From: Macrocystis pyrifera
Taxonomy: Eukaryota; Sar; Phaeophyceae; Laminariales; Laminariaceae
Reading direction: 5' to 3'
Length of the DNA: 64,000 bases
Assembly (NCBI GenBank): GCA_031763025.1
Contig: JASSKH010000027.1
Span: 11,192,055 to 11,256,054, forward strand
The notes beneath the pieces are model-generated. The model had not been told where the DNA came from, did not search any database, and saw only the letters and a list, made by a program, of their open reading frames with translations. The number at the start of each line of letters is the position of its first letter. Position 1 is the stretch's first letter. Position numbers and translations under genes: made by a program. Below are positions 21,445 through 44,884 of this stretch, one piece after another.

Positions 21445-21546
21445 TACGGGGGACCATAGTTAACAGGACCTACGTAAACACAAAAACTCTATATTTACCT
21501 ATTTTTGCTAACAATATTTGGTCCTATTTACTATGGACCCCCGTAA
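21445..21546. mobile_element. ~104-bp MITE, copy 1
   Basis: Ends are inverted repeats of about 25 bp: ACGGGGGACCATAGTTAACA on the left and TTTACTATGGACCCCCGTAA on the right. The AT-rich centre (CTATATTTACCTATTTTTGC) is nearly identical to copies at 55,121, 54,992 and 62,465. The left edge is slightly degraded. Confidence 0.85.
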
Positions 21547-21559
21547 TAGGTACTTCGTA

Positions 21560-23896: not shown

Positions 23897-24175
23897 TGTT
23901 AAGATCAACGGTTGCGGGACACTTTGTATCCCTGGACAGGTCTGCCTTTTAAGTCGGTAATCGTTGGTACTCACGTGTGTTGCTTGCTTAGCTATAGAAG
24001 AAGAGCAGTTTTATTCCTTTCGTGCACGCGGAGACTGAGACCAAGCTCGTGTGCCTCTGGAAAACCCCTGTCTTTCCATCTACGATACGCCTTCCAAGTA
24101 CTACAAATACGTTCCCAGTGACTGAACCCAGGTAGTTACCGGGCTTTCAACCTCATATAAAGCAGTATCATAACA
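23897..24175 (-). repeat. Element B 3' LTR
   Basis: 279 bp. In sense orientation it starts TGTTATGATACTGC and ends GATCTTAACA, with TGTTA/TAACA inverted termini. It contains GGAATAAAACTGC, whose AATAAA could act as the poly(A) signal. Confidence 0.95.
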
Positions 24176-24780: not shown

Positions 24781-25955
24781 CGCTGGACCCCCGTGTAAAA
24801 CGCGCTAGCCAAGTGAACTCGCAGATACCAAGAACCTCGTACAGCTCTCGTCGAAGTCGTGTAGCGCGCCGGAGAAAGAGGAAGCTTGATTGGTCCCGGG
24901 TCGTCCAAAAATCGAACCAAATATACTCTATCCGTCGGTGGAGTTGCGCTGATTTTCCCGAGCCACCACAGACCGTCGTCGCCCTTGTATCAAACGTGGA
25001 CCCCGTTGGGAAGTACAGTGTTGCTGTATCGGCGGAGCCAATCGGCGTGCGATACGCAACCATAGCCGGGTGCCAGAAACCGCTCGCCGTTACTCCGAGA
25101 AAGCTCCCGTTGTGCCGCGCCAATTCTCATTCGGCGGTACAGGCGGTTGGTTTGGCGGTGTTGGTTCGGGGTGCCGCCCCAGTAGAGCAAAAATTCGTGG
25201 CGAGAAAGCTGAAGGTCCATTTCCCGTTCCCAGGATGGCCGGGATATTCCCTTCCAGTGCATCTCGTACATCACCGCGATGACGCCACCTCGACCTCTAA
25301 CCGATTGATGTCCAGTAATCTTTTCCACGTCGAGTCGTTGAAGAGGGGTCGAAACGTCGTCCTCGGTGACGTGGTACGGAGGGGATTTCTTGGAGAAATT
25401 GTTGAGCACGTATTGCGTCAACCCCGCCGGAAAATACTTCGGCATGTCGCCACGGTCGTGGGGGTTGGCACAGGGCTTGCAGCGTTGAACAGATACGCGC
25501 CGGCGAGCCTCAGCGCCGGGCATATCGGAAGGAAGATCCAAATACAGGAGCTTTGCTCCGAGAGGAGATCCATCCGGGGTGTCCGCTGAGGAGCAGGGGC
25601 CTACTGCGAGAACTTTGTAGGGGCCCGTCCAGTTGAGTAAGAGTTTGGCCTTGAGGACCTTGGCGCCCGTGTCTGGTTTCGCGCCCTGGCGGATGGTGGC
25701 CGCCGTATTGTACACCCACACCCAACCACCAACGTCAAATTTGGCGACCGGACGCAGAGCGTCGGAGAGGGTGGAGTTGCGGCGGTTCACGCGAGCGACA
25801 GTGAGGGCGTGGTGTTCTCGAACGATATCGTACGCGCGCTGCTGGCGGTCCGTTGCCAAGTCGCAGTAGGCGAGGTGGTCGAGCGCCAAGCTCTGGTGGC
25901 CGGCGACTCCAGCACATTCGAAAACCGTGAGTGGGAGGCGTGGGGGTCGACCCAT
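24781..25955 (-). pseudogene. Element B integrase C-terminus: GPY/F motif, chromodomain and terminal module
   Basis: The frame 25,955-24,990 (321 aa) follows the TAA stop of the integrase core. In order it has a MGRPPRLPLTV block; VWVYNTAATIRQGAKP; LLLNWTGPYKVLAVGP (GPY/F); HVTEDDVSTPLQRL; and a chromodomain-like stretch with VEKITGHQSVRGRGG, MHWKGISRPSWERE and FLLYWGGTP, matching the Y/W cage and WKG-SWE signature. A last module (frame 25,123-24,773 and neighbours) shares WLRRY and WWLGKI-like blocks with C. Chromodomains target integration to methylated histone H3 in other chromoviruses; here that is inference. Confidence 0.8.
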
Positions 25956-26030
25956 ATATACCTCGTTGGGAGCCAGACCCGTGGCAGCACTGACGGAATT
26001 GTTGTACGCAAGTTCGACGTGAGGGAGCTG

Positions 26031-26870
26031 TTAATCCCAGTTGTTTTGGAGCTCATTGACGACCATTGCCAACATCTGGGCCATCGTGTGGTTTACACGT
26101 TCCACCCCACCGTTTCCGTTTGGGTGGTAGGAGCTGGTGGCAATTTTTCGAACCCCGAGAAGCTGATATACGGCGTGCGAAAGCTTGGAGCAGAACTGGA
26201 GGCCGTTGTCCGAGAGGATGCTGCGCGGGCACCCCCAAAGAGGGATATACCGGTTGATGGGAATGCTAGCCGTGCCCTCAGCGGTGAACTCTGCCGCTGT
26301 GACGGCGTACATGTCAGCTCGGCGGCTGCAACGATCAGTGAAAAGCAAGATGTAGGTATTACCTCGAGGCGTCACCGGGAGGGGGCCGAAATAGTCGATG
26401 CTGACGGCGATGCCGGGCCCTTCTGGCAAGGGCAACGTGATGGAGAGCCACCGGACCGCCTGCCGCGACGTTTTTTCCGTGCTTGGCACCTTAAGCAGTT
26501 GCGTAGCCACCACCGGGTGCAAATGCTCATGCCGATCCACCAGTAGAAACGTTCGAGCATACGTAGGGTGCGCGCGGTTCCTAGGTGGCAGGAAGCCGTG
26601 GAATGGCAAGTCTGCATGACCCAGGGGCGCATGAGCAGCGGAACATAAATGCGAATAGGCTTGGCGTTCAATAAGCAGGCCGTACGGCCCACCGGGCGTT
26701 GCATATCCAACGCAGGGGGGGGAGACGGCTGTCGGACAAGTAGAACGATGCCCGCGTCGGTGGTGTGCAAGCGGCTTTTGTTGGCGAATTCTTGAACCTC
26801 CGAAAAGGGAGGGCACTGGTGGGAAGGGAAACCTGATAAAAATCGTCTGGCAAAACTTCCGGTCGGCCAA
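26031..26870 (-). pseudogene. Element B integrase (DDE core intact, ends at a premature TAA)
   Basis: The catalytic core is in one frame: VSIDYFGPLP (first Asp, about residue 157), ILSDNGLQF (second Asp codon 26,208-26,210) and NGGVERVNHT (Glu codon 26,100-26,102). Exactly 35 residues separate the last Asp and the Glu, as in classic retroviral-type integrases. The HHCC finger (CHSTASCHLG, then CLRC) lies in a different frame (26,372-26,899), so a frameshift separates finger and core near 26,430-26,500. The frame ends NNWD-TAA, a stop shared with element C, while homology to the integrase C-terminus continues beyond. Confidence 0.9.
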
Positions 26871-27337
26871 GGGCTATGTAGCGCATGGCGGCGTTGCACG
26901 CGGGCTCAGTCTGTTGTTCCCGAGCCCAGTCGGCGTGCGAATAGCGCGCTGCGGAATCACCAAACTGAAACTCGGCAGCTGCGCCGAGGGCGTCCAAGTC
27001 GGTCGAGGTAACGGGAGTTGCGTCAGTTGGCGGTGGAAGTGCGGTCGCGGCCGGACGGGATGGGTACCGTCGGGATGGACGAGGCGGCAGGAGTCGGGCC
27101 AAAACGACGGGTGCGGGCGGTCGCGGCCGTGGGGCTCGCAGCGGGGTGATAGCACGCCGGGCTGATGGTCTAGGGGTCCCGCCGGGCCCGAAGCCATAAT
27201 CAACAGCAGGCGGCACGCTGCCAGCGGCGGCGGCTGTTCGTCGGCGCGTCCGAGATGAGATGCGGCCTGAAGACGGCAAAACGTTCGGAGGCGCCGGGTT
27301 GCCAGGCGGCGATGGGGTAGACGCGCGGCCGGATCAG
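26871..27337 (-). pseudogene. Element B integrase N-terminal extension (Pro/Ala-rich)
   Basis: The frame 27,279-26,668 contains PRAPRPRPPAPVV and DALGAAAEFQFGDSAA, then AHADWAREQQ-like sequence, then NAAMRYIALGRPEVLPDDF and the start of the finger region. The same blocks precede integrase in A and C. It is low-complexity and Pro/Arg/Ala-rich at its start, probably a flexible linker. Confidence 0.6.
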
Positions 27338-27963
27338 TGACCACGGTGGAATCTTCGACCTGTAAAGTGCTCGTCGGGGGAGGAGCGCGCTGGGCGACAA
27401 TCGTCGCTGCGGCGGGGGATTCTGCAGAGCCCTGGCGTGAAAGGGAAGACGCGGCCGGAGCAGTGCTCACGGCGGAATCTTCTCCCTGTAAAGTGCTCGT
27501 CGGGGGGGAGAAGCGCGCTGGGCGACAATCATCGCTGCAGCGGGGACTTCGGCAGAGCCCTGGTCTGAGAGGGAAGACGCGGCCGGAGCAGTGATCACGG
27601 TGGAATCTTCGACCTGTAAAGTGCTCGTCGGAAGAGGAGCGCGCTGGGCGACAATCATCGCTGCAGCGGGGGATTCTGCAGAGCCCTGGCATGAAAGGGA
27701 AGACGCGGCCGGAGCAGTGCTCACGACGGAATCTCCGACCTGTAAAGTGCTCGTCGGGGGAGGAGCACGCTGGGCGACAATCATCGCTGCAGCGGAGACT
27801 TCGGCAGAGCCCTGGTCTGAGAGGGAAAACGCGGCCGGAGCAGTGCTCACGACGGAATCTTCTCCCTAAAAAGTGCTCGTCGGAAGAGGAGCACGCTGGG
27901 CGACAATCGTCGCTGCAGCGGGGGCTTCTGCAGAGCCCTGGTCGCCCCCGGAGGGAACGACAA
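27338..27963 (-). repeat. Five-copy 126-bp minisatellite in the RNase H-integrase linker of element B
   Basis: Five units start near 27,338, 27,464, 27,592, 27,719 and 27,845. Each carries ACCTGTAAAGTGCTCGTCGG or a close variant and a GCGACAATCATCGCTGC block. The spacing of about 126 bp is 42 codons. In sense they encode a QGSAE...TIVAQRAP...LQVEDS...APAASSLS unit. Element C has two copies and A one. Confidence 0.85.
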
Positions 27964-28830
27964 AAATCGAAGCGAAAGCGGCGTTGGCGGGAGGTGAAAA
28001 ATCCCCCAAGCCAGGACGGCGGTCGACGGTGGCGACGGAAGCAGATACACGAGCGACGAATCTCCCCGAAGGAGCAGAGAGGTCGTCAATCCTCATGCGT
28101 GGCCCGTGTGTGCGAAAATCGCGAAAATCCGAAGAGGCAAGAGGTAGCCCACCCAAGACGGCACTTTCACTGCGGGACACCAGCCTACCCAAACCGGCAC
28201 CAGGGGTCGGCGAAGAGCGAGTGCGAAGCCCGCAGGCTCCGATGAGGAAGATACCACCGTCCTCGACGGGGTTGAGGCAGCTAGACCCACTGCGGTCGTG
28301 GCCTGTGGCGGGCTCTGGCAAGCGTGAGAGAAAGTCAGCATTTCCGTTGGCGCTGCCCTTGCGGTACTCGAAGGTGTAGTCGAACGCGGTGAGGAACTCG
28401 AGCCACCGCTGGACTCGCGCATGGTGGTCCCCTACTTTGCCGATGCTCTCAAGTGTTTTATGGTCCAAAAACAATCGAAACTTCGTGCCCCACAGGTAAC
28501 CTCGGAGTCGTTTGATGGCCAAGACAAATGCTGCCAGCTTCCAGGTCCAACCGTATCCAGTGCCTTTCGGAATCGAGGGTAGCGCGGCTGATAAAAGCAA
28601 TGGGCCGTACAGAGCCGTCCGGTTGTTCTTGTTCGAGCGCGACACCGAAACCGTCGATGCAGGCGGCGCAGTACACGTGGAAGGGGCGGGAGCCGTCGGC
28701 TACGGCATCCCAGTCAGGGAAGACCAAAATCGGTGGGGCCGCGAGCTCGGCGAGGATCTGGCGGACGATAACTTCCATAGCCGGCGTGAAGACATACTTG
28801 ACCCCTTTCGGAGAAGGGCGATGAGAGGAC
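27964..28830 (-). pseudogene. Element B RNase H
   Basis: The frame 28,778-28,458 has FPDWDAVADGSRPFHVYC, DGFGVALEQEQPDGS and SVRPIAFISRATLDSERHW. After a frameshift the frame 28,645-27,866 continues with VLAIKRLRGYLWGTKF, LDHKTLESIGKVGDHHARVQRW and FDYTFEYRKGSANGNADFLSR. That order is the full gypsy RNase H. The domain cleaves the RNA of the RNA-DNA hybrid during reverse transcription. A disordered Ser/Arg/Pro-rich tail leads into the minisatellite. Confidence 0.85.
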
Positions 28831-29642
28831 GTATCCGTTTAGACAGGTCGGGCAGGAATTTACGATAATATCCTACACCGCCCATCAGGGCGCGGACCTG
28901 CTTGAGGTTCTTGGGCATGGGCATTTTCAGCAAAGCCGAACTTTTTTCCGCATTAGGGCTTATACCCGCGGGCGAAATGGAGTGGCCCAGACAATTGGCG
29001 TCCGTGGCGCCAAGAATTGGCGTCCGTGGCGCCAAGGCGAGCCTTCGAAGGAGAGAGCTTGAGGTTGTATTTGCGCAGGCGTTCGAAGAGGGCTCGTATC
29101 GTCCTGACGTGGGCCGTCGGGTCAGAGTCGAAAACGATCACATCATCAAGGTAGGCCGCCACTTGTGCCAGGCCTTTAATTACTTCGTTAATCACTTTGA
29201 CGAACCAGCCGGGCGAAGCACTGCTGCCTTGGGGCATGACGAGCCACTCGTAAAGGCCCGTGGGAGTGCAGAACGCCGTAAGAGGGACGGTGGTCTTGTG
29301 CGCGGTAATCTGGTAGAACGAGGAGACTAAATCGAAGAGGGAAAACACCGGTCCCTTCCCCAGGGAGTCGAGGACTTGGTCCACGCGAAGAATAGGCAGC
29401 TGGCTGAGGTTGCTGATCTGGTTGAGTTTTTTGTAGTTCACGGTGATCCGAACGCCTGCAGACTTCTTCGGGATGACCACCAGCGGGCTCGAGTACGGGG
29501 ATTTCGAGTGCTGGATCAGACCTGCCGCTAGGTACTGATCCAAGGTGGCCTCCACTTCCTTGGTCAGGATGGGGTTGATGCGGTGCGGCCTGGACGTAAC
29601 AGGAGCGCTTCCTTCCGGGACCGAGATCACGAAAGGCATCAA
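28700..29642 (-). pseudogene. Element B reverse transcriptase
   Basis: The frame 29,642-28,953 carries fingers and palm: EVEATLDQYLAAGLIQHS, YSSPLVVIPKK, VRITVNYKKLNQI, FSLFDLVSSFYQITAH (catalytic Asp), MPQGSSASPGWF and AAYLDDVIVFDSD (YxDD box at 29,127-29,153). A 22-bp tandem duplication (28,993-29,036) shifts the frame. The frame 29,035-28,700 then continues LGHSISPAGISPNAEK and RALMGGVGYYRKFLPDL (thumb/connection). Confidence 0.9.
28993..29036 (-). repeat. 22-bp tandem duplication in element B RT
   Basis: The unit AATTGGCGTCCGTGGCGCCA plus AG occurs twice in a row (28,993-29,014 and 29,015-29,036). Elements A and C have one copy. As 22 is not a multiple of three, the duplication breaks the RT frame. 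Confidence 0.9.
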
Positions 29643-30361
29643 CGAGCAGGAACCGAAATCCGACTTGGACTTCGAGAAACGTCAGGAAATTCACAGAGAA
29701 CGTCCCCCAGCTGTTCGATGACCGCAGGGGTCCAGCCTGTGCCGTAGAGATCAAAAGCCACCTCCCGCAGATGTGACGGCAAGCGTGCCCAGACGCGCAG
29801 GAACGAAGCGCGCTGTATTGAGGACAAACGCTCGAGCAGTGCAGGCGAGGGCGAGGCTGGAGCTGCGAGCGGGGGGGCAGTAACTGCTGAAACCGGACAC
29901 ACCTCACCTAGTCCGGAGGGAGGGCTGGGGGCTCGGTTGTCCTGCTGCAAAACGTCCAGCGGGACGCTCAGCAGTGGGGCGTGGGCGACGCTGAGGACAT
30001 CCCCCGGCTCGAGAGCCGCCACTCCAACGAGGGGAAGAACCTGTCGTCTGGAGGAGACGAAATGCTCCTCGACCGAGGGTAGGTCGGGCTGGGGCATCAT
30101 GTCGACCAAGTAGTGTCCAGTGAGGGCCGGGGAGCCATCGCTTCGAACCAAGTTAGCAGCAAGCAACTGGGGATCGTCGGACAGGGTGTCGCCTGCTGCG
30201 CCCTCGTAGCGTAGATGGAAGCCTCCACCCGAAGCGGCGGAATCGATGGCGTACACGGACATGCCTGTCGGGGCGTGGTGAACTAACTCCAGCTCGCCAA
30301 AAACGCGTTGATCAGACGGCCGAGGTGGCAGAGAGCGGTGGGAGCGGCAATTAAAACGCAT
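29639..30361 (-). pseudogene. Element B: conserved segment between protease and RT
   Basis: A 240-codon frame in the same frame as the upstream 774-codon ORF, separated only by a TGA at 30,374-30,376 where element A has GGA. Blocks DSAASGGGFHLRYEG, PALTGHYLVDMM and APASPSPALLERL recur in A; the last also appears at the start of C. It ends in a frameshift caused by loss of one T: B has GTTTCTCG where C has GTTTTCTCG. Function unknown; it joins protease to RT. Confidence 0.7.
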
Positions 30362-30373
30362 CCAGCTGTCACG

Positions 30374-32698
30374 TCACAATAGTACAGCATGCTGCATCAC
30401 TGAGGGGGGGACCACGCAGGCCCAAACTGCGAGGGAGCAAGTAGGCTCATTTTCTCGAAAAAATTGGACGCTCACGCGCACACTCGTCGAAGTCTTCAGA
30501 GGGGCCGATTTGCCAAAACAAAACCAAGAACGAGGGGCGCCTTTCTGCTCGCACGCGAGGTATGCCGCACCAACCGAGTGGATGCGATCCAAAACATCTC
30601 GTCGGATGAAAGTCTGCGGGGAGCCAGTGTCAAGAAGCGCCACGCAATCCAAAGGTGCAAGAACGCCAGCTCCGCTGTGAATCGTGATTTTGGTTGTAAA
30701 AGAGGCGTCATCGAGGCTAATGGTGCCCCCGACGAGGCAGGGGCCGTGTTCTGGCAGCGCGAGAGAGGGATCGACACTAGGTGCGACAGCCAAAATCTCG
30801 GGGCTGTGATCAGCCGGCGCGTCAGAAAGATAGGTCGAAAACTCCAAAGGAGGACCTGGGCAAGCGCGGGCCACGGCCAAAGGACGGGGCGGCGCTGGTG
30901 TAATCTCATGAATTCTGTCAGGTCTGGTTGGGGTGCAGAATTGATGAGAGGAGGCGGGGTGCGCCAACCCGGCCTCACTTGATCGGAGGGTGTCGCCAAC
31001 GGCAGAAAGAGCTTTACCGAGCAATTTTTTTCCATGCCACCGAGAGGGGTCGTGAGCTTCGGGGTCGTCTGCCCGCAGACCGATGCCCCACACGGCATCA
31101 AAAGGGCTGGCTTCAGCCGAACTTTTGGTGCCAGTGCTCAATAGGTGCTGCTTCATGACCGGGCTCTGCGAGAATTTGGCAAAATTACCAGCAAGGACGG
31201 CGTCTTCCCGAGCACGGTCCCAGATAGCGCAGTCGAACATATGCACGCCTCGACCGAGGCGTTTGTGCTCGCGTGGGTCTGGTGAGGCCATAATCTGCTC
31301 CGCTGTGCCGTTGTCCTGGAAAAGGCGAGCCGTTTCAGCCATCATATACTGCTCCGCGCAGGAATATGACACATCGTCGATGACAAAAGACGAGGGGAGC
31401 CACTGCGAAAAATAAGAGGGGGGCTGCCAGAACGGTACCACCCGCTCCGTTGTATACTCGAGAGTAGCGTCAAAGACCGACGGAGCCGAGTCGTCGGTGG
31501 CCGCAGTTGCGGCGTGTGGGGGGGGGAGTGTGCTTCTCTGAGAACTCTGAGCCCCTGGTGCACGAGACGAGTCCGGTTCCACGTATACTGGCTCTGAGTC
31601 ACCATTTCCCGTAGGCAAAAAATCTCCAGAAGGTTCTCTTGCTGCGCCCGATGATCTCTGTCTTGGACCAAAGGGGGCAGGGGGCTCTGAGCCCGTTCTG
31701 CTTGACGAGAGCTGCGATTCTTCCGAATTTAACGGGGATGCTGTCCGGTTGATCTGACCAGAGGCCGTGGAGTCACCACTGGCTCGACGGACAGTGTCAG
31801 GTTTTTCCTGTTCCACTAGAGCCGAAGGAGCACTGCGCACGTGGAGTGGCGTGAGCGAAGACGAAAGAGGGCCTGCAGACCCCGTAGACGTCTTCAAGAA
31901 CGGTGCTCGGGTAGGGGGCAACAAAGGGTCCCCCGGAGAGGGCTTCCGTCCTGTAGACCTGGTGGGGAAGGGGGACGAGGTAGCTAATCTTGTCGACTCC
32001 TCCTTAATTGGAAACAGGGTGGAGCGACCACCGTTATTGCGAGGAAACGCCGAGTCGAGCTTCAACAGAGATCTCGGGGTTTCGGTGTTTGCCTTCCCGC
32101 AACTCAAACCGACCGCCACCGCATGGCCGGGAGGTGTAGGAGGGGGCGCTGAAAAAAAAACGACGCGACGGCGCGACACCCGTCGTTGCGTTGCGTAGTT
32201 CAGGAGAGAGGCGTTTATCGCGCGCCTGCTCTCGTGCCCAGGTTGAGGGGAGCGGCGTTTGAGGGCTCCCGACGTCGGGGAAGGCGCCCGGAGGCTCCCC
32301 GGAGAAAGCAGTGGAGCTGAGTCGCTGCGCCGGTCCGAAGTACGGAGTAACGCGCGGGGCGGGAGCGGAGTACTGAGCGAGCCTGGGACGCGAGCACCTT
32401 GTGAAATCAAGTTTTTTTTCTCCCGACAATGCTGGCGGCGGGCGGGCAGGAGGAGCCGAACCGTCGTCGACCTGTCAGTTTCCGGCGCGGAAGGTGCCTG
32501 GCTGGGGTCCATTCTGGTTTCCGCTCGAGGTATGCGAGGCACCGTAGTGAACCCCCGAGACGGGAGCCGGGGCGGAAGAGATAGGGGCGATCGAACCATC
32601 ATGATGGCCGGAGTGAGACTGCGGGTGTCCTCGTGCCGCGCGTGTGTTGTAGCCGTCACCTTGTCTGTTTTGCTGACCCTGGCCGTGATGTTGCCCAC
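30374..32698 (-). CDS. Element B ORF with NADAR domain and aspartic protease (774 codons)
   Basis: An uninterrupted 774-codon frame, +1 relative to the gag frame, overlapping its end by about 220 nt. Residues about 1-420 are Ser/Pro/Arg-rich and look disordered. Residues about 421-575 form a NADAR (YbiA/DUF1768-like) domain. Residues about 576-680 are a linker, and about 685-695 read LLDTGSPQTFI, the aspartic-protease active site. NADAR proteins bind or process NAD/ADP-ribose-type substrates, and some remove ADP-ribose from guanine. The frame ends at a TGA but homology continues in the same frame, so this is the front of a longer pol. The element is probably inactive, yet this ORF is intact. 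Confidence 0.85.
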   Translation of the reverse strand: MGNITARVSKTDKVTATTHARHEDTRSLTPAIMMVRSPLSLPPRLPSRGFTTVPRIPRAETRMDPSQAPSAPETDRSTTVRLLLPARRQHCREKKNLISQGARVPGSLSTPLPPRALLRTSDRRSDSAPLLSPGSLRAPSPTSGALKRRSPQPGHESRRAINASLLNYATQRRVSRRRVVFFSAPPPTPPGHAVAVGLSCGKANTETPRSLLKLDSAFPRNNGGRSTLFPIKEESTRLATSSPFPTRSTGRKPSPGDPLLPPTRAPFLKTSTGSAGPLSSSLTPLHVRSAPSALVEQEKPDTVRRASGDSTASGQINRTASPLNSEESQLSSSRTGSEPPAPFGPRQRSSGAAREPSGDFLPTGNGDSEPVYVEPDSSRAPGAQSSQRSTLPPPHAATAATDDSAPSVFDATLEYTTERVVPFWQPPSYFSQWLPSSFVIDDVSYSCAEQYMMAETARLFQDNGTAEQIMASPDPREHKRLGRGVHMFDCAIWDRAREDAVLAGNFAKFSQSPVMKQHLLSTGTKSSAEASPFDAVWGIGLRADDPEAHDPSRWHGKKLLGKALSAVGDTLRSSEAGLAHPASSHQFCTPTRPDRIHEITPAPPRPLAVARACPGPPLEFSTYLSDAPADHSPEILAVAPSVDPSLALPEHGPCLVGGTISLDDASFTTKITIHSGAGVLAPLDCVALLDTGSPQTFIRRDVLDRIHSVGAAYLACEQKGAPRSWFCFGKSAPLKTSTSVRVSVQFFRENEPTCSLAVWACVVPPSVMQHAVLL
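30600..30660 (-). other. Aspartic protease active site of element B
   Basis: In sense the frame reads DCVALLDTGSPQTFIRRD. D-T-G-S is the canonical retropepsin catalytic tetrad motif. The same motif is kept in A (about 11,675) but is followed there by a stop. Confidence 0.85.
30970..31445 (-). other. NADAR (YbiA/DUF1768-like) domain inside gypsy pol
   Basis: Sense motifs in order: FWQPPSYFSQWLPSSF; YSCAEQYMMAETARLFQD, the conserved E-x-x-M/F helix; RLGRGVHMFDCAIWDRAR; FAKFSQSPVMKQHLLSTG; AEASPFDAVWGIGL; and WHGKKLLGKAL. This matches the NADAR family along its whole length (x-F-S-N/Q-W/F, EQY, LGR, W-x-x-x-R, K-F-x-Q-x-P, L-L-x-T, E-x-S-x-x-D-x-x-W-G-x-G, LGK-x-L). All are in one frame with no break. 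The next recognisable domain downstream is the retroviral-type protease. Confidence 0.92.
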
Positions 32699-33476
32699 GC
32701 GAGTGGCCGGGACGACGCCTGTGTTTCTTCTGGTTGTGTTTGTTCGGTCGTGAATTGTTCTCGCGGCGGTGTCTGATCATGCGTTCTTGCCAACGACGGA
32801 ACGCCTCGCCGTCGTCGCCTAGCGTTCCGAGGTCGGGGTTCAAGATACCACTAAGGTTTAAAAAGGGGTGTCTACACTGTCGAAGAGAGTGTGTGTGTTC
32901 GTGACAAGTTAAACAGCGTCCTCGCTTTTCGCTGAGGGCGGCTGCGCGAGCGGACGATGAAAGTAGGCCGCTCCAGAGGGGAGGGTCCTCGGTCTGGATG
33001 GACATGCAAACGGCGTGAACTTCGGCATAGTGGTGTTCTTCAAGGGGCCAGCAGTTGGAAGAGGTGTCAAGCCACGTGTCGAGGCAGTCAGGGATGGATT
33101 TGTGGACATTCATCACAAGCGGATTATTGCGCGATCCAATCTGCCAAGAAGGCGACTGGGGAAGCGTCCGGCTCTGGCCGCGACCAATATTGGCGGGCCG
33201 GGGCCCCGACGGGGCGGATGACCGCGCACCCGTCGAAGAAGCAGGCAAAGAAAAATATTTTTCGCCGTTGACGGCAGGATTATTCGCAAGAGTCTCGAAA
33301 GCTAACCACATGTCGTCCAAAGTGCCGAACGGCGTCGATACCGTAGCCAAACCTCCCGGGTACAGCGTGGGCATCAAGCTAGGGTACTGCTCGTGCACTG
33401 CCATCCGAACTACCTCCAAAACAACCTCCACCCCCGGTGCCAAAACACGCTCAGTCCCCGTCGCTGCGGACACCAC
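32475..33476 (-). pseudogene. Element B gag C-terminal part with CCHC zinc knuckle
   Basis: 333 codons in the same frame as the gag segment ending at 33,480; a single TGA separates them. It contains CLTCHEHTHSLRQC (sense, about 32,868-32,912), a textbook C-x2-C-x4-H-x4-C nucleocapsid knuckle that would bind genomic RNA. A basic His/Arg/Gln-rich tail follows (KKHRRRPGHSRGQHH). It ends at a stop inside the start of the NADAR ORF, giving a gag/pro overlap of about 220 nt where a programmed frameshift could occur. Confidence 0.8.
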
Positions 33477-33479
33477 CCC

Positions 33480-35862
33480 TCACAATGCACGACTAAAATC
33501 GCAAAAAGGGGTCCCGTTAGCCACGCCAAAATTATGCAACTTGGTGTAGCTGGTCCCCGTGTTAGTGCGGTCGAAGTGGTTGCTCAGCAACCTCAGGAGG
33601 AGCGTGAACGCCTCCGGTCCCGTCGATCCTGCTGCGAGGGCGCGCGATACCTGTCCAAAAACATCTTCCATCACGGTAGTGAGAGGGGCGGTCGTAGGCT
33701 TGTCAGGCGTGATGGCGCGCGCGAAGGACTTCTTAAGAGGGTACTCCCAACCGGGGATCCAATTATTAGAACTAAGGCCTTTATGGCTGCCATCGTTGCA
33801 CATCATGAGAATATCAGAGGCGGAGGCCTTGACCGAACGCGTGAGTTGCTGCGCGGCCTCGCAAGGGTCGATCGAGGAGGGGAAAGGTAGGACAAAAATG
33901 CGCGAAATATCCTTCAGTCCCAGGCGTTGGTACGCCCGTTGGACGTCGGTAGTGTGCTGTTTCGCGGCGGTGGCGGCGGCGGAGTCGATCGCCGAAGTTC
34001 GGTCGTGAGCAACGTTAGATGACACAGGCATGGCACGGTCATCGAGCATGGTCAAACGACCAAGACGCGCGGCGGAAGAAGCAACCTCAGTCAGCGAGGG
34101 AATCACTTGCCTCTTGCAGGTTGCGTGCTTCGCTGGGACGGGGGCTCTGGTGTCGCCGTCCGAGGAAGAGCTGGGAGAAGTAGCTCGACCAGAGTTGCCC
34201 CGTGGGCCGTACCGGCCGTCACCCGATCGCTCCTTCCCCTTTCTCCCGGTTTCTTCGCCGTCCAGCCCCGTTGCGCCGAGACGAACTGCCACCCGTTTCC
34301 CCGCCCGAGCTCTGGCGGAACCTGCCGTCCGGACCGGCCGAATCCCCTCCAACCCTCGGGCGCTGGCGGGCCTGGTCGCCAGCGCGGCAGCGAGAGCGGT
34401 CTCCGGCCACAGAGCTGTCGCCAGCTCCCCGGTGTCCGCTGGAGGAGGCGGGGTGGTCGTCAGCTCCCCGGTGTCCGCTGGAGGAGGTGGGCTGGTGTCC
34501 AGCATCCGGTCCCGAGTAAGGGAGGGGGGGCTCCTGGAGGGCGGCGCGTGACCGCCGTTTGCAGTGGAGCTGGTACGCGGCAGGTCTCGGCCATGAGACG
34601 GTGGTGGAAGAAGCAACGTGGGCCTTCCGGAGGCTGACCACCAGAGCCATTGTGTAGGCCCGGCGCTGTTGGGCCGCCCAGGAATCGTCCGACATCTCCA
34701 GTCAAGCGTCGTGGACCGAGAGGCCTTCGGCCGGCATCTCGCGTCGGAGGCGGCGAGCGACAGAGACCACCAGGGTCGCCTCCTCGGGGGGAAAGCACGG
34801 GTTTGGCTCGGCCGCCATGCAAGCGACACTCCCCTGCAAGAAGTCCAGATCCCCGGTACACTTGGTCCGGGCGTCGATCGCGATCGCAGCGGGGGAACAC
34901 GGTTTCGTGGGGCCAAGGCCGGGAGCTGGAGCGGCCTTCGTTGTGGAGGAGGCGAGTGGAAGGTTCTCCGCTGGGGCCCTCGTCTCGGCGGCCCGACTGG
35001 TCTTGGAGGAAGCGACCGCCCGGGCAGCCCGCAGTGCTTCACTGGCTCGAGATATGGAGTCTTGCGCGCAAGAGGCGGAGCGAGCGGCTTCCTCGGAAGC
35101 CGTGGCGGCAGCCATGGCGACCGCGGCGGCGGCCGTGGAGGCGCGGGCGGCAGATGCAGCCGCGAGCTCGGCCGACACACGCGTCTGCGCCCGACGACTC
35201 GCCGTTGTCGCCGAGGCAGCCCCAAGGGCCTCGGCAGTGGCCAAAGCCTGCTCGGCCGCGAGGACGTCGGGGTGATTGCCCGCGACACCAGGAGCCCGTG
35301 CGGCCGCGGCAGTGTCGGCCTGGCCGGGCGCGGGGCGTTCGGCTGTTGTCCCCGCGTCAAGGCTCGAATGGGTGGCCCAACGCTGGATCACAACCGCCTG
35401 CTCCTCTGGCGAGAGGGAGGTTCACGCTCCAGGTAGCTGGGGGGGCGCCTGGGCACTGTCCGGGTCCTCGGCCGCCGTTCCTGGGTCCTTCTCGGTAGCC
35501 AGCTGCTCGTCCTCTGAGTCAGGGGGCTCGAAGTCCACGGCGTCGTCCAGAGTCGTGGGGCCCGCGGGCTCGGGTGTCCTCGCTCCCGAAGAGGGAGAGG
35601 AGCCGTAAGTCCTCAGGCCGCTGGGAGACCTGGCTGGGCTGGGTGACCCCTCCCATGCTTTTGTTGTCCGTGACATGCTGAAGCGGGGGTGGGCGGAAAA
35701 CACCGGGGCAAAGGGTGACACCGGGGCAGGGGGGGACACCGAGGCAGGGGGGGGCGGGAAATGGCGGTTCTCAGGGTCGTGGCGCGTAGAAGCAGCGGCG
35801 GCAGGAGCCGCGGCTTGTGCTTCAGCAACTTGTATAGCTGTGATCAAGGCCTGGCGCTCCAT
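33480..35862 (-). pseudogene. Element B gag N-terminal and central parts (broken)
   Basis: The frame starting MERQALITAIQVAEAQA at 35,862 is interrupted by TGA stops near 35,422 and 34,702. The sense then passes to the 35,360-33,480 frame after a frameshift near 34,200-34,500. The central region has long Ala-rich heptad-like sequence (ATAEALGAASATTASRR, AELAAASAARAS), probably coiled coil. The capsid-like part shares DDRAMPVSS, SLKDIS-like and LLLRLLSNHFDRTNTG blocks with element A. It ends at TGA (33,480-33,482) where A has CGA, a C-to-T change. Confidence 0.7.
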
Positions 35863-37184: not shown

Positions 37185-37300
37185 CGTGCAGTGGCCGGAA
37201 CAAACTTACTCTACAACAACAGGAAAGCAAACAAAAAAAAACAGTGACAAACAACGCAAACCAACTAAAACGCGGAAAGTCCTAAGCCGAAGACGCCACT
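37185..37300 (-). promoter_or_regulatory. Element B 5' leader with candidate primer-binding site
   Basis: Directly after the 5' LTR the sense strand reads AG then TGGCGTCTTCGGCTTAGG (37,281-37,298). TGG next to an LTR is the usual start of a tRNA primer-binding site. Element C keeps the same place as CGGCGTCGACGG. Which tRNA would pair was not determined. A T/G-rich leader follows to the ATG at 37,184. Confidence 0.55.
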
Positions 37301-37579
37301 TGTTAAGATCAACGATTGCGGGACACGTTGTATCCCTAGACAGGTCTGCCTTTTAAGTCGGTAATCGTTGGTACTCACGTGTGTTGCTTGCTTAGCTATA
37401 GAAGAAGAGCAGTTTTATTCCTTTCGTGCACGCGGAGACTGAGACCAAGCTCGTGCGCCTCTGGAAAGCCCCTGGTTTTCCATCTAAAATACGCCTTCCA
37501 AGTACTACAAATACGTTCCCAGTGACTGAACCCAAGTAGTTACCGGGCTTTCAACCTCATACAAAGCAATATCATAACA
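37301..37579 (-). repeat. Element B 5' LTR
   Basis: 279 bp, same termini as the 3' LTR and about 96% identical by eye (about twelve differences). It would carry the promoter. The GGAATAAAACTGC block is conserved. Confidence 0.95.
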
Positions 37580-39114: not shown

Positions 39115-39391
39115 TGTTATGATACTGCTTTGTATGAGGTTGAAAGCCCGGTAATTACCTGGGTTCAGGAACTGGGAACGTATTTGTAGTACTTGGAAGA
39201 CGTATCTAAGGTGGAAAACCAGGGGTTTTCCAGAGACGCATGAGCTTGGTCTCAGTCTCCGCGTGTACGAAAGGAATAAAACTGCTCGTCTTCTATCGCT
39301 AAGCAAGCACACACGTGAGTACCAACGAGTACCGACTTAAAAGGCAGACCTGTCTAGGGATACAAAGTGTCCTGCACGCTTGATCTTAACA
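39115..39391 (+). repeat. Element C 5' LTR
   Basis: 277 bp, starts TGTTATGATACTGC and ends TTGATCTTAACA, nearly identical to the LTRs of B. Contains GGAATAAAACTGC. The next bases AGCGGCGTCGACGGC correspond to B's primer-binding site with a few changes. Confidence 0.95.
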
Positions 39392-39409
39392 AGCGGCGTC
39401 GACGGCAGG

Positions 39410-40440
39410 ACAAACTTCAGCCTCACCCTCGCCTGCACTGCTTGAGCGTTTGACCTCAGAAGAGCGCGCTTCGCTCCTGCGCGTCTGGGCACGCTTGCCG
39501 TCACATCGGGAGGTGGCTTTGACCTCCACGGTACAGGCTGGACCCCTGCGGTCATCGAACAACTGGGGGACGTCCTCTGCGAATTTCCTAACGTTTTCTC
39601 GAAGTCCAAGTCGGATTTTGGTTCCTGCTCGTTGATACCTTTCGTGATCTCGGTCCCGGAAGGAAGCGCTCCTGTCACGTCCAGGCCGCACCGCATCAAC
39701 CCCATCCTGACCAAGGAAGTGGAGGCCACCTTGGATCAGTACCTAGCGGCAGGTCTGATCCAGCACTCGACTTCCCCGTACTCGAGCCCGCTGGTGGTCA
39801 TCCCGAAGAAGTCTCGAGGCGTTCGGATCGCCGTGAACTACAAAACCTCAACCAGATCAGCAACCTCAGTCAGCTGCCTATTCCTCACGTGGACCAAGTC
39901 CTCGACTCGCTGGGGATGGGACAGGTGTTTTCCCTCTTCGATTTGGTCTCATCGTTCTACCAGGTTACCGCGCACATGAAGCACCGTCACTCTCACGGCG
40001 TTTAGCACTCCCACGGGCCTTTACGAGTGGCTCGTCATGCCCCAAGGCAGCAGTGCTTTGCCCGGCTGGTTCGTCAAAATGATTAACGAAGTCAATAAAG
40101 GCCTGGCATAAGTGGCGGCCTACCTTGATGATGTGATCGTTTTCGACTCTGACCCGACGGCCCACGTCAAGACGATACGAGCCCTCTTCGAACGCCTGCG
40201 CAAGCACAACTTCACGCTCTCCTCCTCGAAGGCTCGCCTCGGCGCCACGGACGTCAACTTTCTGGGCCACTCCACGTCGCCCGCCGGTATAGGCCCTAGT
40301 GCGGAAAAAGTTTCGGCTTTGATGAAAATTCCCATGCCCAAGAACCTCAAGCAGGTCCGAGCCTTGATGGGCGGGCGTAGAATATTGTCGCAAATTCCTG
40401 CTCGACCTGTCTGAACGGATACGTCCTCTCACCGCCCTTC
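39410..40440 (+). pseudogene. Element C reverse transcriptase (broken)
   Basis: The frame 39,450-39,635 and neighbours give the pre-RT segment. The frame 39,632-39,979 has EVEATLDQYLAAGLIQHS and SSPLVVIPKKSRGVRIAVNY, then a 2-base loss in the AACTACAAAA run shifts frame. The palm resumes with AAYLDDVIVFDSD (frame 40,112-40,414), ending PMPKNLKQVRALMGG, where another frameshift occurs. An in-frame TAA also precedes the YLDD box (GGCATAAGTGGCGGC). Confidence 0.8.
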
Positions 40441-40935
40441 TCAGGAAGGGGGCCAAGTACGTCTTCACGCCGGCTATGGAAGTTATCGTCCCCCAGATCC
40501 TCGCCGAGCTCGCTGCCCCACCGATTTTGGTCTTCCCGGACTGGGACGCCGTAACCGACGGCTTCCACACGTACTGCGACGCCTGCATCGACGGTTTTGG
40601 TGCCGCGCTCAAACAGGAGCAACCGGACGGCTCGATACGGCCCATTGCCTATATCAGCCGCGCTACCCTCGATTCCGAGAGGCACTGGACACCGTTGGAC
40701 CTGGAAGCTGGCAGCATTGTCTAGGCCATCAAACGACTCCGAGGTTATCTGTGGGGTACGAAGTTTCGAATATTTTCGGAACATGAAGCACTTGAGAGCA
40801 TCGGCAAAGTAGGGGACCACAACGCGCTAATCCAGCGGTGGCTCGAGTTCCTCACCGCGTTTGAGTACACCCTCGAGTACCGCAAGGGCAGCGCCAACGG
40901 AAATGCTGACGTTCTCTCCCGCTTGCCGGAGCTCG
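40441..40935 (+). pseudogene. Element C RNase H (broken)
   Basis: The frame 40,476-40,724 has FPDWDAVTDG, CDACIDGFGAALKQEQ and PIAYISRATLDSERHW, ending at a TAG that replaces the Trp/Leu codon region of A and B (AGCATTGTCTAGGCC). Beyond it come KRLRGYLWGTKF-like, EHEALESIG-like and LEYRKGSANGNADVLSR sequence. Confidence 0.75.
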
Positions 40936-41289
40936 CCACAGAACACGACCGCAGTGGGTCTAGCTGCCTCAACCCCGTCGAGGACGGTGTATCTTCCTCA
41001 TCGGAGCCTGCGGGCTTCGCACTCGCTCTTCACCGACCCTTGGTGTCGGTTTGGGTGGGCTGGTGTCCCGCAGTGAAAGTGCCGTCTTGGGTGGGCTACC
41101 TTTCACCTCTTTGGATTTTCGCGATTTTCGCACACACGGGCCACGTATGAGGATTGACGATGTTTCTGCTCCTTCGGGGAGATTCGTCGCTCGTGTATCT
41201 GCTTCCGTAGCCACCGTCGACCGCCGTCCTGGCTTGAGGGTTTTTTTTCACCCCCCGCCAACGCCGCTTTGGCTTCGGTTTTTGTCGTT

Positions 41290-41545
41290 CCCTCCGGAGG
41301 CGACCAGGGCTCTGCAGAAGCCCCCGATGCAGCGACGATTGTCGCCCAGCGCGCTCCTTCCCCGACCAACACTTTACAGGTCGAAAATTCTGCCGTGAGC
41401 ATTGCTCCGGCCGCGTCTTTCCTTTCAGGCCAGGGCTCTGCAGAAGCCCCCGTTGAAGCGACGATTGTCGCCCAGCGCGCTCTTCTCCCCTAACGAGCAC
41501 TTTACAGGGAGAAGATTCCGCTGTGATCACTGATCCGGCCGCGTC
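41290..41545 (+). repeat. Two-copy 126-bp minisatellite in element C linker
   Basis: Two units, each with CAGGGCTCTGCAGAAGCCCC and CGACGATTGTCGCCCAGCGC, spaced about 126 bp. They encode QGSAEAPDAATIVAQRAP-type peptide. Homologous to the five-copy array in B and the single unit in A. Confidence 0.85.
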
Positions 41546-42852
41546 TGCCCCATCCCCGCCTGGCAACCCGGCGCCTCTGAACGTCTTGCCGTCTTTAGAC
41601 CGCATCTAAAATCGGATGCGCCGACGAACAGCCGCCGCCACTGGCACTGTGCCGCCTGCCGCTGGTGGCTTTGGACCCAGCGGGGCCCCTAGACCATCGG
41701 CCCGGCGTGCTATCACCCCGCCGCGAGCCCCACGGCCGCGACCGCCCGCACACGTCGTTATGGCCCCGACTCCTGCCGCCTCGTCCGTCCCGACGGTACC
41801 CATCCTGTCTGACAGCGACCGCGCCGAGCCCGTGGGAACTCCTCTTTTACGGCTTGCGCCGCCAACTGACGCACCTCCCGTCACCTCGACCAACTTGGAC
41901 GCCCTCGGCGCAGCTGCCGAATTTCAGTTCGGTGATTCCGCAGCGCGCTATTCGCACGCCGACTGGGCTCGGGATCGGGAACAACAGGCTGAGCCCGCGC
42001 GCAACGTCGCCATGCGCTACATAGCCCTTGGCCGGCCGGAAGTTTTGCCAGACGATTTTTTATCAGGTTGCCCTTCCCACCAGCGCCCTCCCTTTTCGGA
42101 GGTTCACGAATTCGCCAACAAAAGCCGCTTGCACACCACCGACGCAGGCATCGTTCCACTCGCCCGACCCCCTGTGTCGGATACGCAACGCCCGGTGGTT
42201 CGTACGGCCTGCTTATTGAACGACGAGCCTACTCGCATTTATGTTCCGCTGCTAGTGCGCCCCTGAATCATGCAGGAATGCCATCCCACGGCTTCCTGCC
42301 ATAGGAACCGCGCGCACCCTACGTGTGCTCGAACGTTTCTACTTGTCGATCGGTATGAGCATCTGCACCCGATGGTGGCTACGCAACTGCTTGAAGAGCA
42401 AGCGCGAAAACCGTCGCGGCAGGCGGTCGGGGGGCCCTCCATTACGTTCCCCTTGCCAGAAGGGCCCAGCATCGCCGTCAGCATCGACTATTTCGGCCCT
42501 CTCCCGGTGACGCCTCGAGGTAATACCTGCATCTTGCTTTTCGCTGATCATTTCAGCCGCCGAGTCGACATGTACGCCGTGGCAGCGGCAGAGTTCACCG
42601 CTGAGGGCACGGCTAACATTCTCATCAACCGGCATATCCCTCTTTTGGGGGTGCCCGCGCAGCATCCTCTCGGACAACGGCCTCCAGTTCTGCTCCAATA
42701 TTTCGCGCGCCGTATATCAGCTTCTCGGGGTTCGAAAAATTGCCACCAGCTCCTACCACCCAAACGGCAACAGTGGGGTGGAACGTGTAAACCACACGAT
42801 GGCCCAGATGCTGGAAATGGTCGTCAACGAGCTCCAAAACAACTGGGATTAA
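41546..42852 (+). pseudogene. Element C integrase (broken)
   Basis: The frame 41,616-42,266 has the Pro/Ala-rich lead and DALGAAAEFQFGDSAARYSHADWA. The HHCC region is split between frames (42,325-42,510 carries RWWLRNCLK). The core frame begins VSIDYFGPLP, then a frameshift before SDNGLQF-like sequence (GGGGTGCCCGCGCAGCATCC) moves the sense. The Glu block appears as GNSGVERVNHT in another frame. NNWD-TAA (42,850-42,852) is the same stop as in B. Confidence 0.8.
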
Positions 42853-44103
42853 CAGCTCCCTCACGTCGAACTTGCGTACAACAATTCCGCCAGTGCCGCC
42901 ACGGGTCTGGCTCCCAACGAGGTACATATGGGTCGGCTGCCAGGCCTCCCACTCACAATTTTCGGGCTTGCTGGAGTCGCCGGCCACCAGAGCTTGGCCT
43001 GCGACCACCTCGCCTACTACGACTTGGCGACGGACCGCCAGCAGCGCGCGTACGATATCGTTCGAGTACACCACGCTCTCACTGTCTCTCGCGTGAACCA
43101 CCGCAACTCCGCCCTCTCCGACCCTCTGCGTCCGGTCCCCAAATTTGACGTTGGTGGTTGGGTGTGGGTGTACAATATGGCGGCCACCATCCGCCAGGGC
43201 GCGAAACCAGACATGGACGCCAAGGTCCTCAAGGTCAAACTCTTACTCAACTGGACGGGCCCCTACAAAGTTCTCGCAGTTGGCCCCTGCTCCTCAGCGG
43301 ACACCCCGGATAGATCTCCTCTCGGAGCAAAGCTCCTGTATTTGGATCTTCCTTCCGATATGCCCGGCGCTGAGGCTCGCCGGCGCGTATCTGTTCAATG
43401 CTGCAAGCCCTGTGCCACCCCCCACGACCGTGGCGACATGCCGAAGTATTTTCCGGCGGGGTTGGCGCAATACGTGCTCAACAAAATTTCTCCAAGAAAT
43501 CCCCCCCGTACCACGTCACCGAGGACGACGTTTCGACCCCTCTTCAACGACTCGAAATGGAAAAGATTACTGGACATCAATCGGTTAGAGGTCGAGGTGG
43601 CGTCATCGCGGTGCTGTGCGAGACGCACTGGACAGGACTATCCCGGCCATCCTGGGAACGGGAAATGGACTTTCAGCTTTCTCGCCAGGCAATTTTGCGC
43701 TATTGAGCCGGAACCCCGAACCAACACCGTCAAACCAACCGCCTGTACCGCCGAATGAGAATTGGCGCGGCACAACGGGAGCTTCTCGGAGTAACGGCGA
43801 GCGGTTTCTGGTACCCGGCTATGGCTGCGTATCGCACGCCGATTGGCTCCGCCGATACAGCAAGACTGTAATTCCCAGCGGGGCTCATGCTTTGCACAAG
43901 GGCGACAACAATCCGTGGTGGCTCGGGAAAATCAGCGCAACTACACCAACGGATGGAGTATATTTGGTTCGCTTTTTGGACGACCCGGGACCAATCAAGC
44001 TTCCTCTTTCTCCGGCGCGCTACACGACTTCGACGAGAGCTATACGAGGTTCTTGGTGTCTGAAATTCACTTGGCTAGCGCGTTTGCACGGGGGCCCAGC
44101 GTA
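42853..44103 (+). pseudogene. Element C integrase C-terminus: GPY/F, chromodomain, Trp-rich terminal module
   Basis: The frame 42,928-43,758 has MGRLPGLPLTIFG, VWVYNMAATIRQGAKP, LLNWTGPYKVLAVGP (GPY/F) and AEARRRVSVQCC; then a frameshift and HVTEDDVSTPLQRLE, MEKITGHQSVRGRGG and PSWEREMDFQ (chromodomain, with WTG in place of WKG). The frame 43,616-44,104 ends with the best preserved terminal module: HADWLRRYSKTV, NPWWLGKISATTP and DGVYLVRFLDDPGPIKLPL. The W-x-G-K-I...Y-x-V-x-F-x-D-D pattern resembles Tudor/SH3-like modules; that reading is inference. Confidence 0.8.
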
Positions 44104-44707
44104 ACGTAGATGAATCTCGAGGCGCTGCCGTGGATAGCTGATAATTGCTTCTTGGCTGCACTCGATATTTATCTTTTCGTCATTTTCCTGGACTTTGGAG
44201 GTGTTTTTTTTTGTGCTCGATGTGTTTCTGGTTAGTTTTCTTTTGGGGGAGGGGCTGGGTTGAGGATGTGTTTTTTTCGTATTTTGTTCTGCCTACCCCC
44301 CCCGCTCAGTGTCGGGACTGATCTGGGTAATCGGCCGCTCATTTGCGGCCCAGGACGCGTTTTCAGAGTTGTGGGCTGGGTTTAGGTGGTTCTTGCCGTA
44401 TTCCGTGTTATTTTATTTTCGTTTCCCTGTTCAGTTTTTTTTCGCTTTTCCATGCATCTTCCTCGCCTCCCCCCCCCGTGCGGGCGGCATGGCGATGGCT
44501 TCCATTAACCATTTCTTCCTGCCCCTTAAGGCTATGTCTTCCCTTCATTTTTTTTCACGTACTTTGCCGGCTTCGTTGCCTCGCCGTGCAGAGGTGTGGG
44601 AGTGGGTTTAGAGGAGCTGCATCTTCGACTCATGTTCTAGTTCGTGAAATTTAGGTTTCCATGATTTTCCCATAATTCTGCATATACGGCTCATCAGAGT
44701 GAGCTAG
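44104..44707 (+). other. Element C 3' non-coding region
   Basis: Starts with GATGAATCTCGAGGCG after the last stop and ends GGCTCATCAGAGTGAGCTAG before the LTR, colinear with A and B. AGAGTGAG may be the polypurine tract. Overlapping ~100-codon frames have no known domain. Confidence 0.6.
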
Positions 44708-44884
44708 TGTTATGATACTGCTTTGTATGAGGTTGAAAGCCCAGTAATTACCTGGGTTCAGGCACTGGGAACGTATTTGAAGTACTTGGAAGGTGTACCA
44801 GGGGTTTTCCAGAGACGCACGAGCTTGGGCTCAGTCTTCGCGTGCACGAAAGCAATAAAACTGCTCTTCTTCTATCGCTAAGTT
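44708..44884 (+). repeat. Element C 3' LTR (truncated)
   Basis: Starts TGTTATGATACTGC and matches the 5' LTR through TTCTTCTATCGCTAAG, with AATAAAACTGC kept and a short internal deletion after GAAGGTGTA. The last third is missing and the junction abuts TGTTACGGTGG, the start of another LTR-like sequence. Confidence 0.85.

What the first reader, a model, noticed from the sequence alone, without database searches (positions are those of the whole stretch)
30970..31445. NADAR (YbiA/DUF1768-like) domain built into a gypsy retrotransposon pol
Seen: one open 774-codon frame carries a complete NADAR-type domain (EQYMM, LGRGV, IWDRAR, FAKFSQSP, VWGIGL, LLGKAL) about 110 residues upstream of the DTGS protease site, and it is homologous to a half domain at the same place in element A. 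So it was part of the family, not a one-off insertion. Known: NADAR proteins are linked to NAD/ADP-ribose chemistry and some reverse ADP-ribosylation of guanine. Inference: the element may have used it to counter host ADP-ribosylation of its nucleic acid or proteins, or to tap NAD metabolites.
Basis: partly seen in the sequence, partly recalled or inferred. Interest (0 to 1): 0.92.

Follow-up and report, generated by a model that had tools for sequence, protein, structure and literature searches.

The report
Kelp retrotransposon carrying a NADAR enzyme
A decayed jumping element in what is almost certainly the giant kelp genome carries, inside its own polyprotein, an enzyme domain known elsewhere for removing ADP-ribose from DNA; the same arrangement was published in 2025 for another brown alga, and here it proves to be a regular part of a very large element family.

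Summary
A complete NADAR domain (PF08719, E = 2e-42; window 30983-31432, minus strand) sits in one open frame about 115 residues before the protease site of a 13.7-kb Ty3/Gypsy element (23897-37579). Its model matches the ADP-ribose-bound NADAR structure 8bau. Assembly statistics point to giant kelp, Macrocystis pyrifera. The architecture is not new: PMC12477816 (2025) reports NADAR at the N-terminus of Pol in one Gypsy lineage of Ectocarpus. New here: the kelp holds at least 150 such domains; 85 of 90 inspected have the protease next door; 11 of 12 element copies picked by reverse transcriptase also have the domain. Two subfamilies, 44% identical in the domain, keep the catalytic lysine (88 of 90 copies), but the window copy has threonine there and is otherwise broken, so it is probably dead. 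Nine of ten inspected copies of the second subfamily lack the reverse-transcriptase core yet keep NADAR and, in the two read further, integrase.

The parts
37301..37579 (-). 5' LTR of element B (279 bp, TG...CA)
   Evidence: 270 of 282 compared positions identical to the 3' LTR; ACAG on both outer sides, a 4-bp target duplication
23897..24175 (-). 3' LTR of element B
32475..33479 (-). 3' part of the presumed Gag frame, zinc knuckle CLTCHEHTHSLRQC (CX2CX4HX4C) at 32874-32915
   Evidence: no Pfam knuckle match, the motif is read directly
30374..32776 (-). N-terminal Pol frame, 800 codons: long linker, NADAR, linker, protease; another frame than Gag, overlapping it by about 300 bases
30983..31432 (-). 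NADAR domain (residues 449-598); residue 482 (31331-31333) is Thr in place of the catalytic Lys
   Evidence: PF08719 E = 2e-42; 8bau by sequence E = 5.3e-12 and by fold TM 0.80
30620..30637 (-). aspartic protease motif LLDTGS
   Evidence: motif read directly, no Pfam protease match
28953..29681 (-). reverse transcriptase (YLDD at 29142-29153)
   Evidence: PF00078 E = 2.6e-24
27866..28838 (-). RNase H, in two overlapping frames
   Evidence: PF17919 E = 7.2e-13, PF17917 E = 2e-10 and 3.9e-10
26031..26873 (-). integrase core
   Evidence: PF00665 E = 2.7e-6, 28 bits, under the curated cut-off of 32.6
24990..26030 (-). integrase C-terminal part with a weak chromodomain-like stretch (about 25221-25328)
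   Evidence: PF00385 E = 0.02, below cut-off; E = 0.0031, also below cut-off, in sister copy L222
10939..11655 (+). element A: last 92 residues of the NADAR domain, then linker and protease start; Tyr at the place of D560
39115..44882 (+). element C: 5' LTR joined to the stretch just before RT; Gag, NADAR and protease absent

Best explanation
The domain is a resident enzyme module of a brown-algal Ty3/Gypsy lineage. It is encoded in Pol directly before the protease, so it would be packaged with Gag-Pol and released or left attached when the protease acts (inferred from position). Its pocket is that of a YbiA-family NADAR, and its most likely work is to cleave ADP-ribose (or a related N-glycosidic adduct) off guanine in the element's RNA or cDNA, keeping the template readable and undoing host marking. 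Shown: domain identity, predicted fold, position, presence across the lineage, retention of the pocket residues in most inspected copies, constraint over the split of two subfamilies. Inferred: activity, substrate, packaging, benefit. This particular copy is decayed and probably inactive.
For: PF08719 E = 2e-42. AlphaFold2 model, mean pLDDT 91.8, closest to 8bau (NADAR with ADP-ribose, E = 1.6e-10, TM 0.80) and YbiA 2b3w. Of nine residues that passages of PMC11543638 name around ADP-ribose or near the active site of 8bau, mapped through the alignment, the window keeps eight (E475, K505, R509, W519, R523, E555, D560, W563). Own genome: 150 of 150 scored candidates over the cut-off, 1264 in the first look; protease homologue on the same strand in 85 of 90 inspected loci; Lys at 482 in 88 of 90, and E555, D560, W563, W519, R523 in 90 of 90. 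Sample picked by RT and not by NADAR score: NADAR in 11 of 12, Lys in 10 of 11. Between subfamilies uncorrected pN is 0.34 and pS 0.74, close to saturation; median corrected dN about 0.45, median ratio 0.17 (400 pairs). Within subfamily 1 the ratio falls from 1.07 for the closest pairs to 0.32 for the most distant, as expected for constraint while elements move and free decay afterwards.
Against: No activity assay. The window copy has Thr at the catalytic Lys. Within subfamilies NADAR is no more constrained than its neighbours (subfamily 1: NADAR 0.51, linker 0.55, protease 0.36, protease-RT stretch 0.50; subfamily 2: 0.43, 0.45, 0.69, 0.49), and the copies were ranked by NADAR score, which by itself lowers dN. 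The ratio between subfamilies rests on saturated synonymous sites. A versus B alone is inconclusive (0.77, 95% range 0.44-1.48). No host ADP-ribosyltransferase could be looked for (search not answered). PMC11125620 (passages) reports that guanine-ADP-ribose activity in vitro did not by itself give antitoxin protection in E. coli.
Confidence: 0.5

Rival explanations
1. The domain processes the element's RNA or a small NAD-derived molecule rather than reversing host ADP-ribosylation: an RNA-processing or metabolite-cleaning role, as the authors of PMC12477816 suggest for Ectocarpus (RNA intermediates).
For: Their reading; YbiA cleaves N-glycosidic bonds of riboflavin intermediates (passages of PMC9303266 and PMC11543638); a protein with three NADAR domains is essential for trans-splicing in nematodes (PMC9303266, passages).
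Against: The NADARs whose tests I saw in passages of PMC11543638 and PMC11125620 hydrolyse guanine ADP-ribose; nothing in the window points to a particular small molecule.
Confidence: 0.27
2. The domain has become a non-catalytic binder or folding module of Pol.
For: The window copy lacks the catalytic lysine; at residue 584 (Asn in 128 of 128 relatives) 20 of 55 subfamily-1 copies have another residue.
Against: Lys 482 in 88 of 90 copies and E475 in 88 of 90; similar in the RT-picked sample.
Confidence: 0.12
3. The domain is a captured bacterial gene that hitch-hikes without use.
For: The relatives found outside are bacterial, archaeal and phage proteins, 40-52% identical for the 54 aligned; PMC12477816 also suggests horizontal acquisition.
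Against: Two subfamilies keep the same pocket although synonymous sites are near saturation; the domain is published in Ectocarpus as well.
Confidence: 0.08
4. A separate host or bacterial gene, or an assembly join, lies beside the element by accident.
For: None found.
Against: One open frame through NADAR and protease, and the same neighbourhood in 85 of 90 loci on many contigs.
Confidence: 0.01

Closest known systems
NADAR-bearing Gypsy lineage of Ectocarpus (Gypsy-12_Ec32), PMC12477816
   Same: [quoted passage not shown] putative C-terminal chromodomain fused to integrase; brown alga (section 5 part 1 of 2 read; passages).
   Different: Giant kelp, another order (recalled). Their element sequences and supplementary figures were not available to me, so common descent of the elements was not tested. 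What I read of the paper names no RT-less NADAR derivative and no residue-level check of the pocket.
Tx1 LINE ORF1 NADAR of Pacific oyster (mentioned in PMC12477816)
   Same: NADAR in a retrotransposon protein.
   Different: Non-LTR element, ORF1 rather than Pol; described there as divergent.
DarT1-NADAR antitoxins and the Phytophthora NADAR 8bau (PMC11543638, PMC11125620; passages)
   Same: Fold and ADP-ribose pocket.
   Different: Stand-alone or operon proteins; the window has the YbiA-type glutamate (E555), not the aspartate of DarT-linked NADARs.
NADAR in polyproteins of nidoviruses and other RNA viruses (PMC9503650)
   Same: NADAR embedded in a polymerase polyprotein of a genetic parasite; proposed to act on macromolecular ADP-ribosylation by the host (passages).
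   Different: Positive-strand RNA viruses of animals, no reverse transcription.
dUTPase in the pro gene of betaretroviruses (PMC3621094, passages)
   Same: A small nucleotide-cleaning enzyme encoded with the protease and working as a nucleocapsid fusion; a likeness of position only.
   Different: Unrelated fold and chemistry (recalled).
AlkB-like m6A demethylase in orchid Gypsy elements (PMC9289625, abstract and outline)
   Same: A captured enzyme that removes a mark from nucleic acid, in a Gypsy element; activity shown there in vitro.
   Different: Additional open reading frame, other chemistry, land plants.

Membership tests
NADAR superfamily, YbiA family | PF08719 profile over the curated cut-off, near full length | tested here: met
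   145.7 bits against 35.1, positions 2-163 of 163
NADAR superfamily, YbiA family | YbiA/NADAR fold | tested here: met
   predicted model; the only two PDB hits under E 0.001 are 8bau and 2b3w
NADAR superfamily, YbiA family | catalytic Glu (E43 of 8bau) and YbiA-type Glu (E125 of 8bau) | tested here: met
   E475 and E555 by the profile alignment
NADAR superfamily, YbiA family | catalytic Lys (K95 of E. coli C7 NADAR, taken as K50 of 8bau because both stand seven residues after the Glu) | tested here: not met
   Thr482 in this copy, Lys in 128 of 128 relatives; but Lys in 88 of 90 other kelp copies, so the family meets it and this copy does not
NADAR superfamily, YbiA family | release of ADP-ribose from guanine | not testable with these tools
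   needs purified protein
Ty3/Gypsy LTR retrotransposon | paired LTRs with TG...CA ends and target duplication | tested here: met
   279-bp LTRs, 4-bp ACAG
Ty3/Gypsy LTR retrotransposon | order Gag, PR, RT, RNase H, IN | tested here: met
   Gag and PR by motif only, integrase core just under the Pfam cut-off
Ty3/Gypsy LTR retrotransposon | tRNA primer binding site | not tested
   sequence after the 5' LTR printed but not compared with tRNAs
[quoted passage not shown]
Ectocarpus NADAR-Gypsy lineage | C-terminal chromodomain | tested here: inconclusive
   E = 0.02 here, 0.0031 in a sister copy, both below the Pfam cut-off
Ectocarpus NADAR-Gypsy lineage | common descent in an RT tree | not testable with these tools
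   Ectocarpus element sequences not held

The most novel reading that the evidence does not exclude
The enzyme matters to the element in cis. An RT-deleted derivative with one shared junction (9 of 10 second-subfamily copies inspected) has multiplied in the kelp while keeping the NADAR domain (catalytic Lys in 35 of 35 second-subfamily copies) and, in the two copies read further, integrase. It would thus borrow reverse transcriptase but bring its own ADP-ribose eraser, which would make nucleic-acid ADP-ribosylation a real barrier to retrotransposons in brown algae.
Probability: 0.15. Interest if true: 0.8.

Novelty: new member of a known kind. Interest (0 to 1): 0.45.

Why it matters
It extends the published Ectocarpus observation to what is almost certainly giant kelp and shows that the domain is a regular part of a very abundant element family whose inspected copies mostly keep the catalytic residues. 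If the activity is real, brown algae would be a place where ADP-ribosylation of nucleic acid in a eukaryote, and its removal by a genetic parasite, can be tested directly. For the window itself it also warns that the copy described is decayed and should not be taken as the type of the enzyme.

Tried and rejected
Protein database search for the frame and for the domain: switched off, not made. Viral-contig scan with the RT: 18 stretches matched a pattern, none a relative. LTR 24-mer in viral contigs: 0 matches. Viral-contig scan with the second subfamily's NADAR: 2 stretches matched, no relative. dN/dS between A and B: inconclusive; one search stopped with an error after part of its output and was redone; A has 15 codons out of register, tested with and without. 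Tree of the domain: no well-supported placement of the window domain among bacteria; a single origin of both subfamilies is not rejected (p-AU 0.40), nor shown; relatives were picked by words of the window's own domain, a bias. Papers on brown algae and ADP-ribosyltransferases: listing only, nothing taken. PARP search in the own genome: not answered.

Rows dropped or chosen: the 90 inspected loci are 90 of the 150 scored rows, the first 70 by score plus 20 picked further down, most of them of the window's type, so 55 to 35 is not the true ratio of the subfamilies. Of the five without a protease hit, one (L217) was cut on the wrong side by my error. The comparison between subfamilies used 20 of 55 and 20 of 35 copies. 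The RT deletion was looked at in 10 of 35 second-subfamily loci. One search read the minus-strand loci in the wrong orientation; its counts for those rows are void and were redone. One search picked 12 of the 150 RT rows, eight near the top and four near the bottom, all absent from the NADAR list.

Full report
What is there. The window holds three related Ty3/Gypsy elements: A (about 9.4-19.1 kb, plus), B (23897-37579, minus) and C (39115-44882, plus). B is bounded by 279-bp LTRs with TG...CA ends, 270 of 282 compared positions identical, and a 4-bp duplication ACAG. It is broken: an in-frame stop parts the two presumed Gag frames, another follows the protease frame, and the frame changes around RT, RNase H and integrase.

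The domain. The 800-codon frame 30374-32776 (minus) contains PF08719 at residues 449-598, E = 2e-42. The structure model has mean pLDDT 91.8, and its only matches below E 0.001 in the PDB are 8bau (NADAR bound to ADP-ribose, TM 0.80) and 2b3w (YbiA). Chance is excluded. The domain keeps 36 of 40 positions that are at least 95% constant among 128 bacterial, archaeal and viral relatives, at 40-52% overall identity to the 54 relatives aligned. Those relatives were found with words of the query, which favours likeness around residues 473-480.

Active site. From passages of PMC11543638 and the profile alignment, E43, K50, K75, R79, W89, R93, E125, D130 and W133 of 8bau (chain numbering there runs two higher) correspond to E475, T482, K505, R509, W519, R523, E555, D560 and W563 of the window. 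Eight of nine are kept; the lysine is threonine. That K50 is the counterpart of the lysine shown to catalyse in E. coli C7 NADAR (K95) is my inference from equal spacing to the glutamate. In element A, which retains only the last 92 residues, the aspartate is tyrosine. Both window copies therefore carry damage at such positions.

Which organism. The window lies in an assembly of 537,376,219 bases in 223 contigs, with contigs of 26,510,325 and 13,669,674 bases. PMC10498591 reports for Macrocystis pyrifera 537 Mb, 35 scaffolds and 188 contigs, and N50 13,669,674 (passages); PMC12116465 gives a largest scaffold of 26.51 Mb (passages). The window is therefore almost certainly giant kelp. The kelp paper does not mention NADAR or Gypsy (0 occurrences each).

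The family in the own genome. NADAR gave 1264 first-look candidates, of which 150 were scored and 150 passed the cut-off. Of 90 loci read, 55 are of the window's type and 35 of a second type 44% identical to it in the domain. A protease homologue lies downstream on the same strand in 85 of 90. Lys 482 is present in 53 of 55 and 35 of 35. Because these loci were ranked by NADAR score, I also went the other way: the RT search gave 3350 first-look candidates, 150 scored. Of 12 RT places absent from the NADAR list, 11 have NADAR where expected; of these 11, Lys 482, E475, E555 and D560 are each kept in 10 and W563 in 8. So the domain is a regular part of this lineage, and the window copy's threonine belongs to a small minority.

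Selection. Between the two subfamilies uncorrected pN is 0.34 and pS 0.74 (near saturation), median corrected dN about 0.45 and median ratio 0.17 (400 pairs). Within subfamily 1 the pooled pN/pS is 0.53, falling from 1.07 for the closest pairs to 0.32 for the most distant; within subfamily 2 it is 0.43; window copy against subfamily 1 it is 0.93. This fits constraint while elements move and free decay after insertion. Against an over-reading: linker and protease of the same copies have similar ratios, the copies were ranked by NADAR score, the between-subfamily ratio rests on saturated sites, and A against B alone gives 0.77 (0.44-1.48) or, without the 15 codons out of register, 0.59 (0.28-1.36).

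An RT-less derivative. Two second-subfamily copies read over 8.5 kb run from the start of RT straight into the later RNase H part at the same place, with integrase present. Of eight further copies read across that place, seven show the same loss and one has RT: nine of ten in all. RT places of 75-77% identity fit copies of this type that still have RT (76% in the one copy read). This derivative has thus spread, presumably with reverse transcriptase supplied in trans (inference), and keeps the NADAR domain. Recent spread from one source could explain the retention without selection.

How it most likely works. NADAR sits between Gag and protease on Pol; betaretroviruses encode dUTPase within pro, working as a nucleocapsid fusion (PMC3621094, passages). 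NADAR would enter the particle with Gag-Pol and act on the template. NADARs tested in PMC11543638 and PMC11125620 remove ADP-ribose from guanine (passages), and RNA-virus polyprotein NADARs are proposed to act on host ADP-ribosylation (PMC9503650, passages). I put the ADP-ribose-eraser reading at about 0.5, RNA or metabolite processing at about 0.27, a non-catalytic role at about 0.12.

What is known. [quoted passage not shown] The window matches that architecture; its chromodomain is weak (E = 0.02; 0.0031 in a sister copy). Searches of the held papers for NADAR with retrotransposon, Ectocarpus or kelp, for 'NADAR domain', for YbiA with retrotransposon and for Gypsy-12_Ec32 listed no other paper that I could recognise as treating NADAR in an LTR element; most of those listings were seen by title and start of abstract only, and one search listed 30 of 104. 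The finding is therefore a new member of a known kind, with two additions: the pocket is kept in most inspected copies of a large kelp family, and an RT-less derivative carries the domain.

Noticed in passing
27324-27943: Tandem repeat of 126 bp, 4.9 copies, in the region between RNase H and integrase of element B; one unit aligns in A (15474-15579) and one to two in C (41302-41550). A repeat that varies in number inside Pol.
   Followed up: partly
L219, L220, L224-L228, L230, L231: Second-subfamily copies lacking the RT core with one shared junction (nine of ten inspected).
   Followed up: partly
39115-44882: Element C has its 5' LTR joined to the stretch just before RT, without Gag, NADAR and protease.
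   Followed up: partly
22658-23496 (minus): Tyrosine-recombinase-like remnant (Phage_integrase E = 0.044, below cut-off), perhaps of a DIRS or Ngaro element.
   Followed up: no
28993-29036: Exact 22-bp direct duplication inside the RT region of element B.
   Followed up: no
35984-36321: 114-bp tandem repeat, about 3 copies, in the 5' part of element B.
   Followed up: no
21482-21550, 55035-55103, 55160-55228, 62503-62571: A 69-bp motif in four copies outside the three elements (family D15), perhaps a short mobile element.
   Followed up: no
30374-32776: About 450 residues of largely proline- and serine-rich Pol sequence precede the NADAR domain, overlapping the end of the presumed Gag by about 300 bases.
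   Followed up: no
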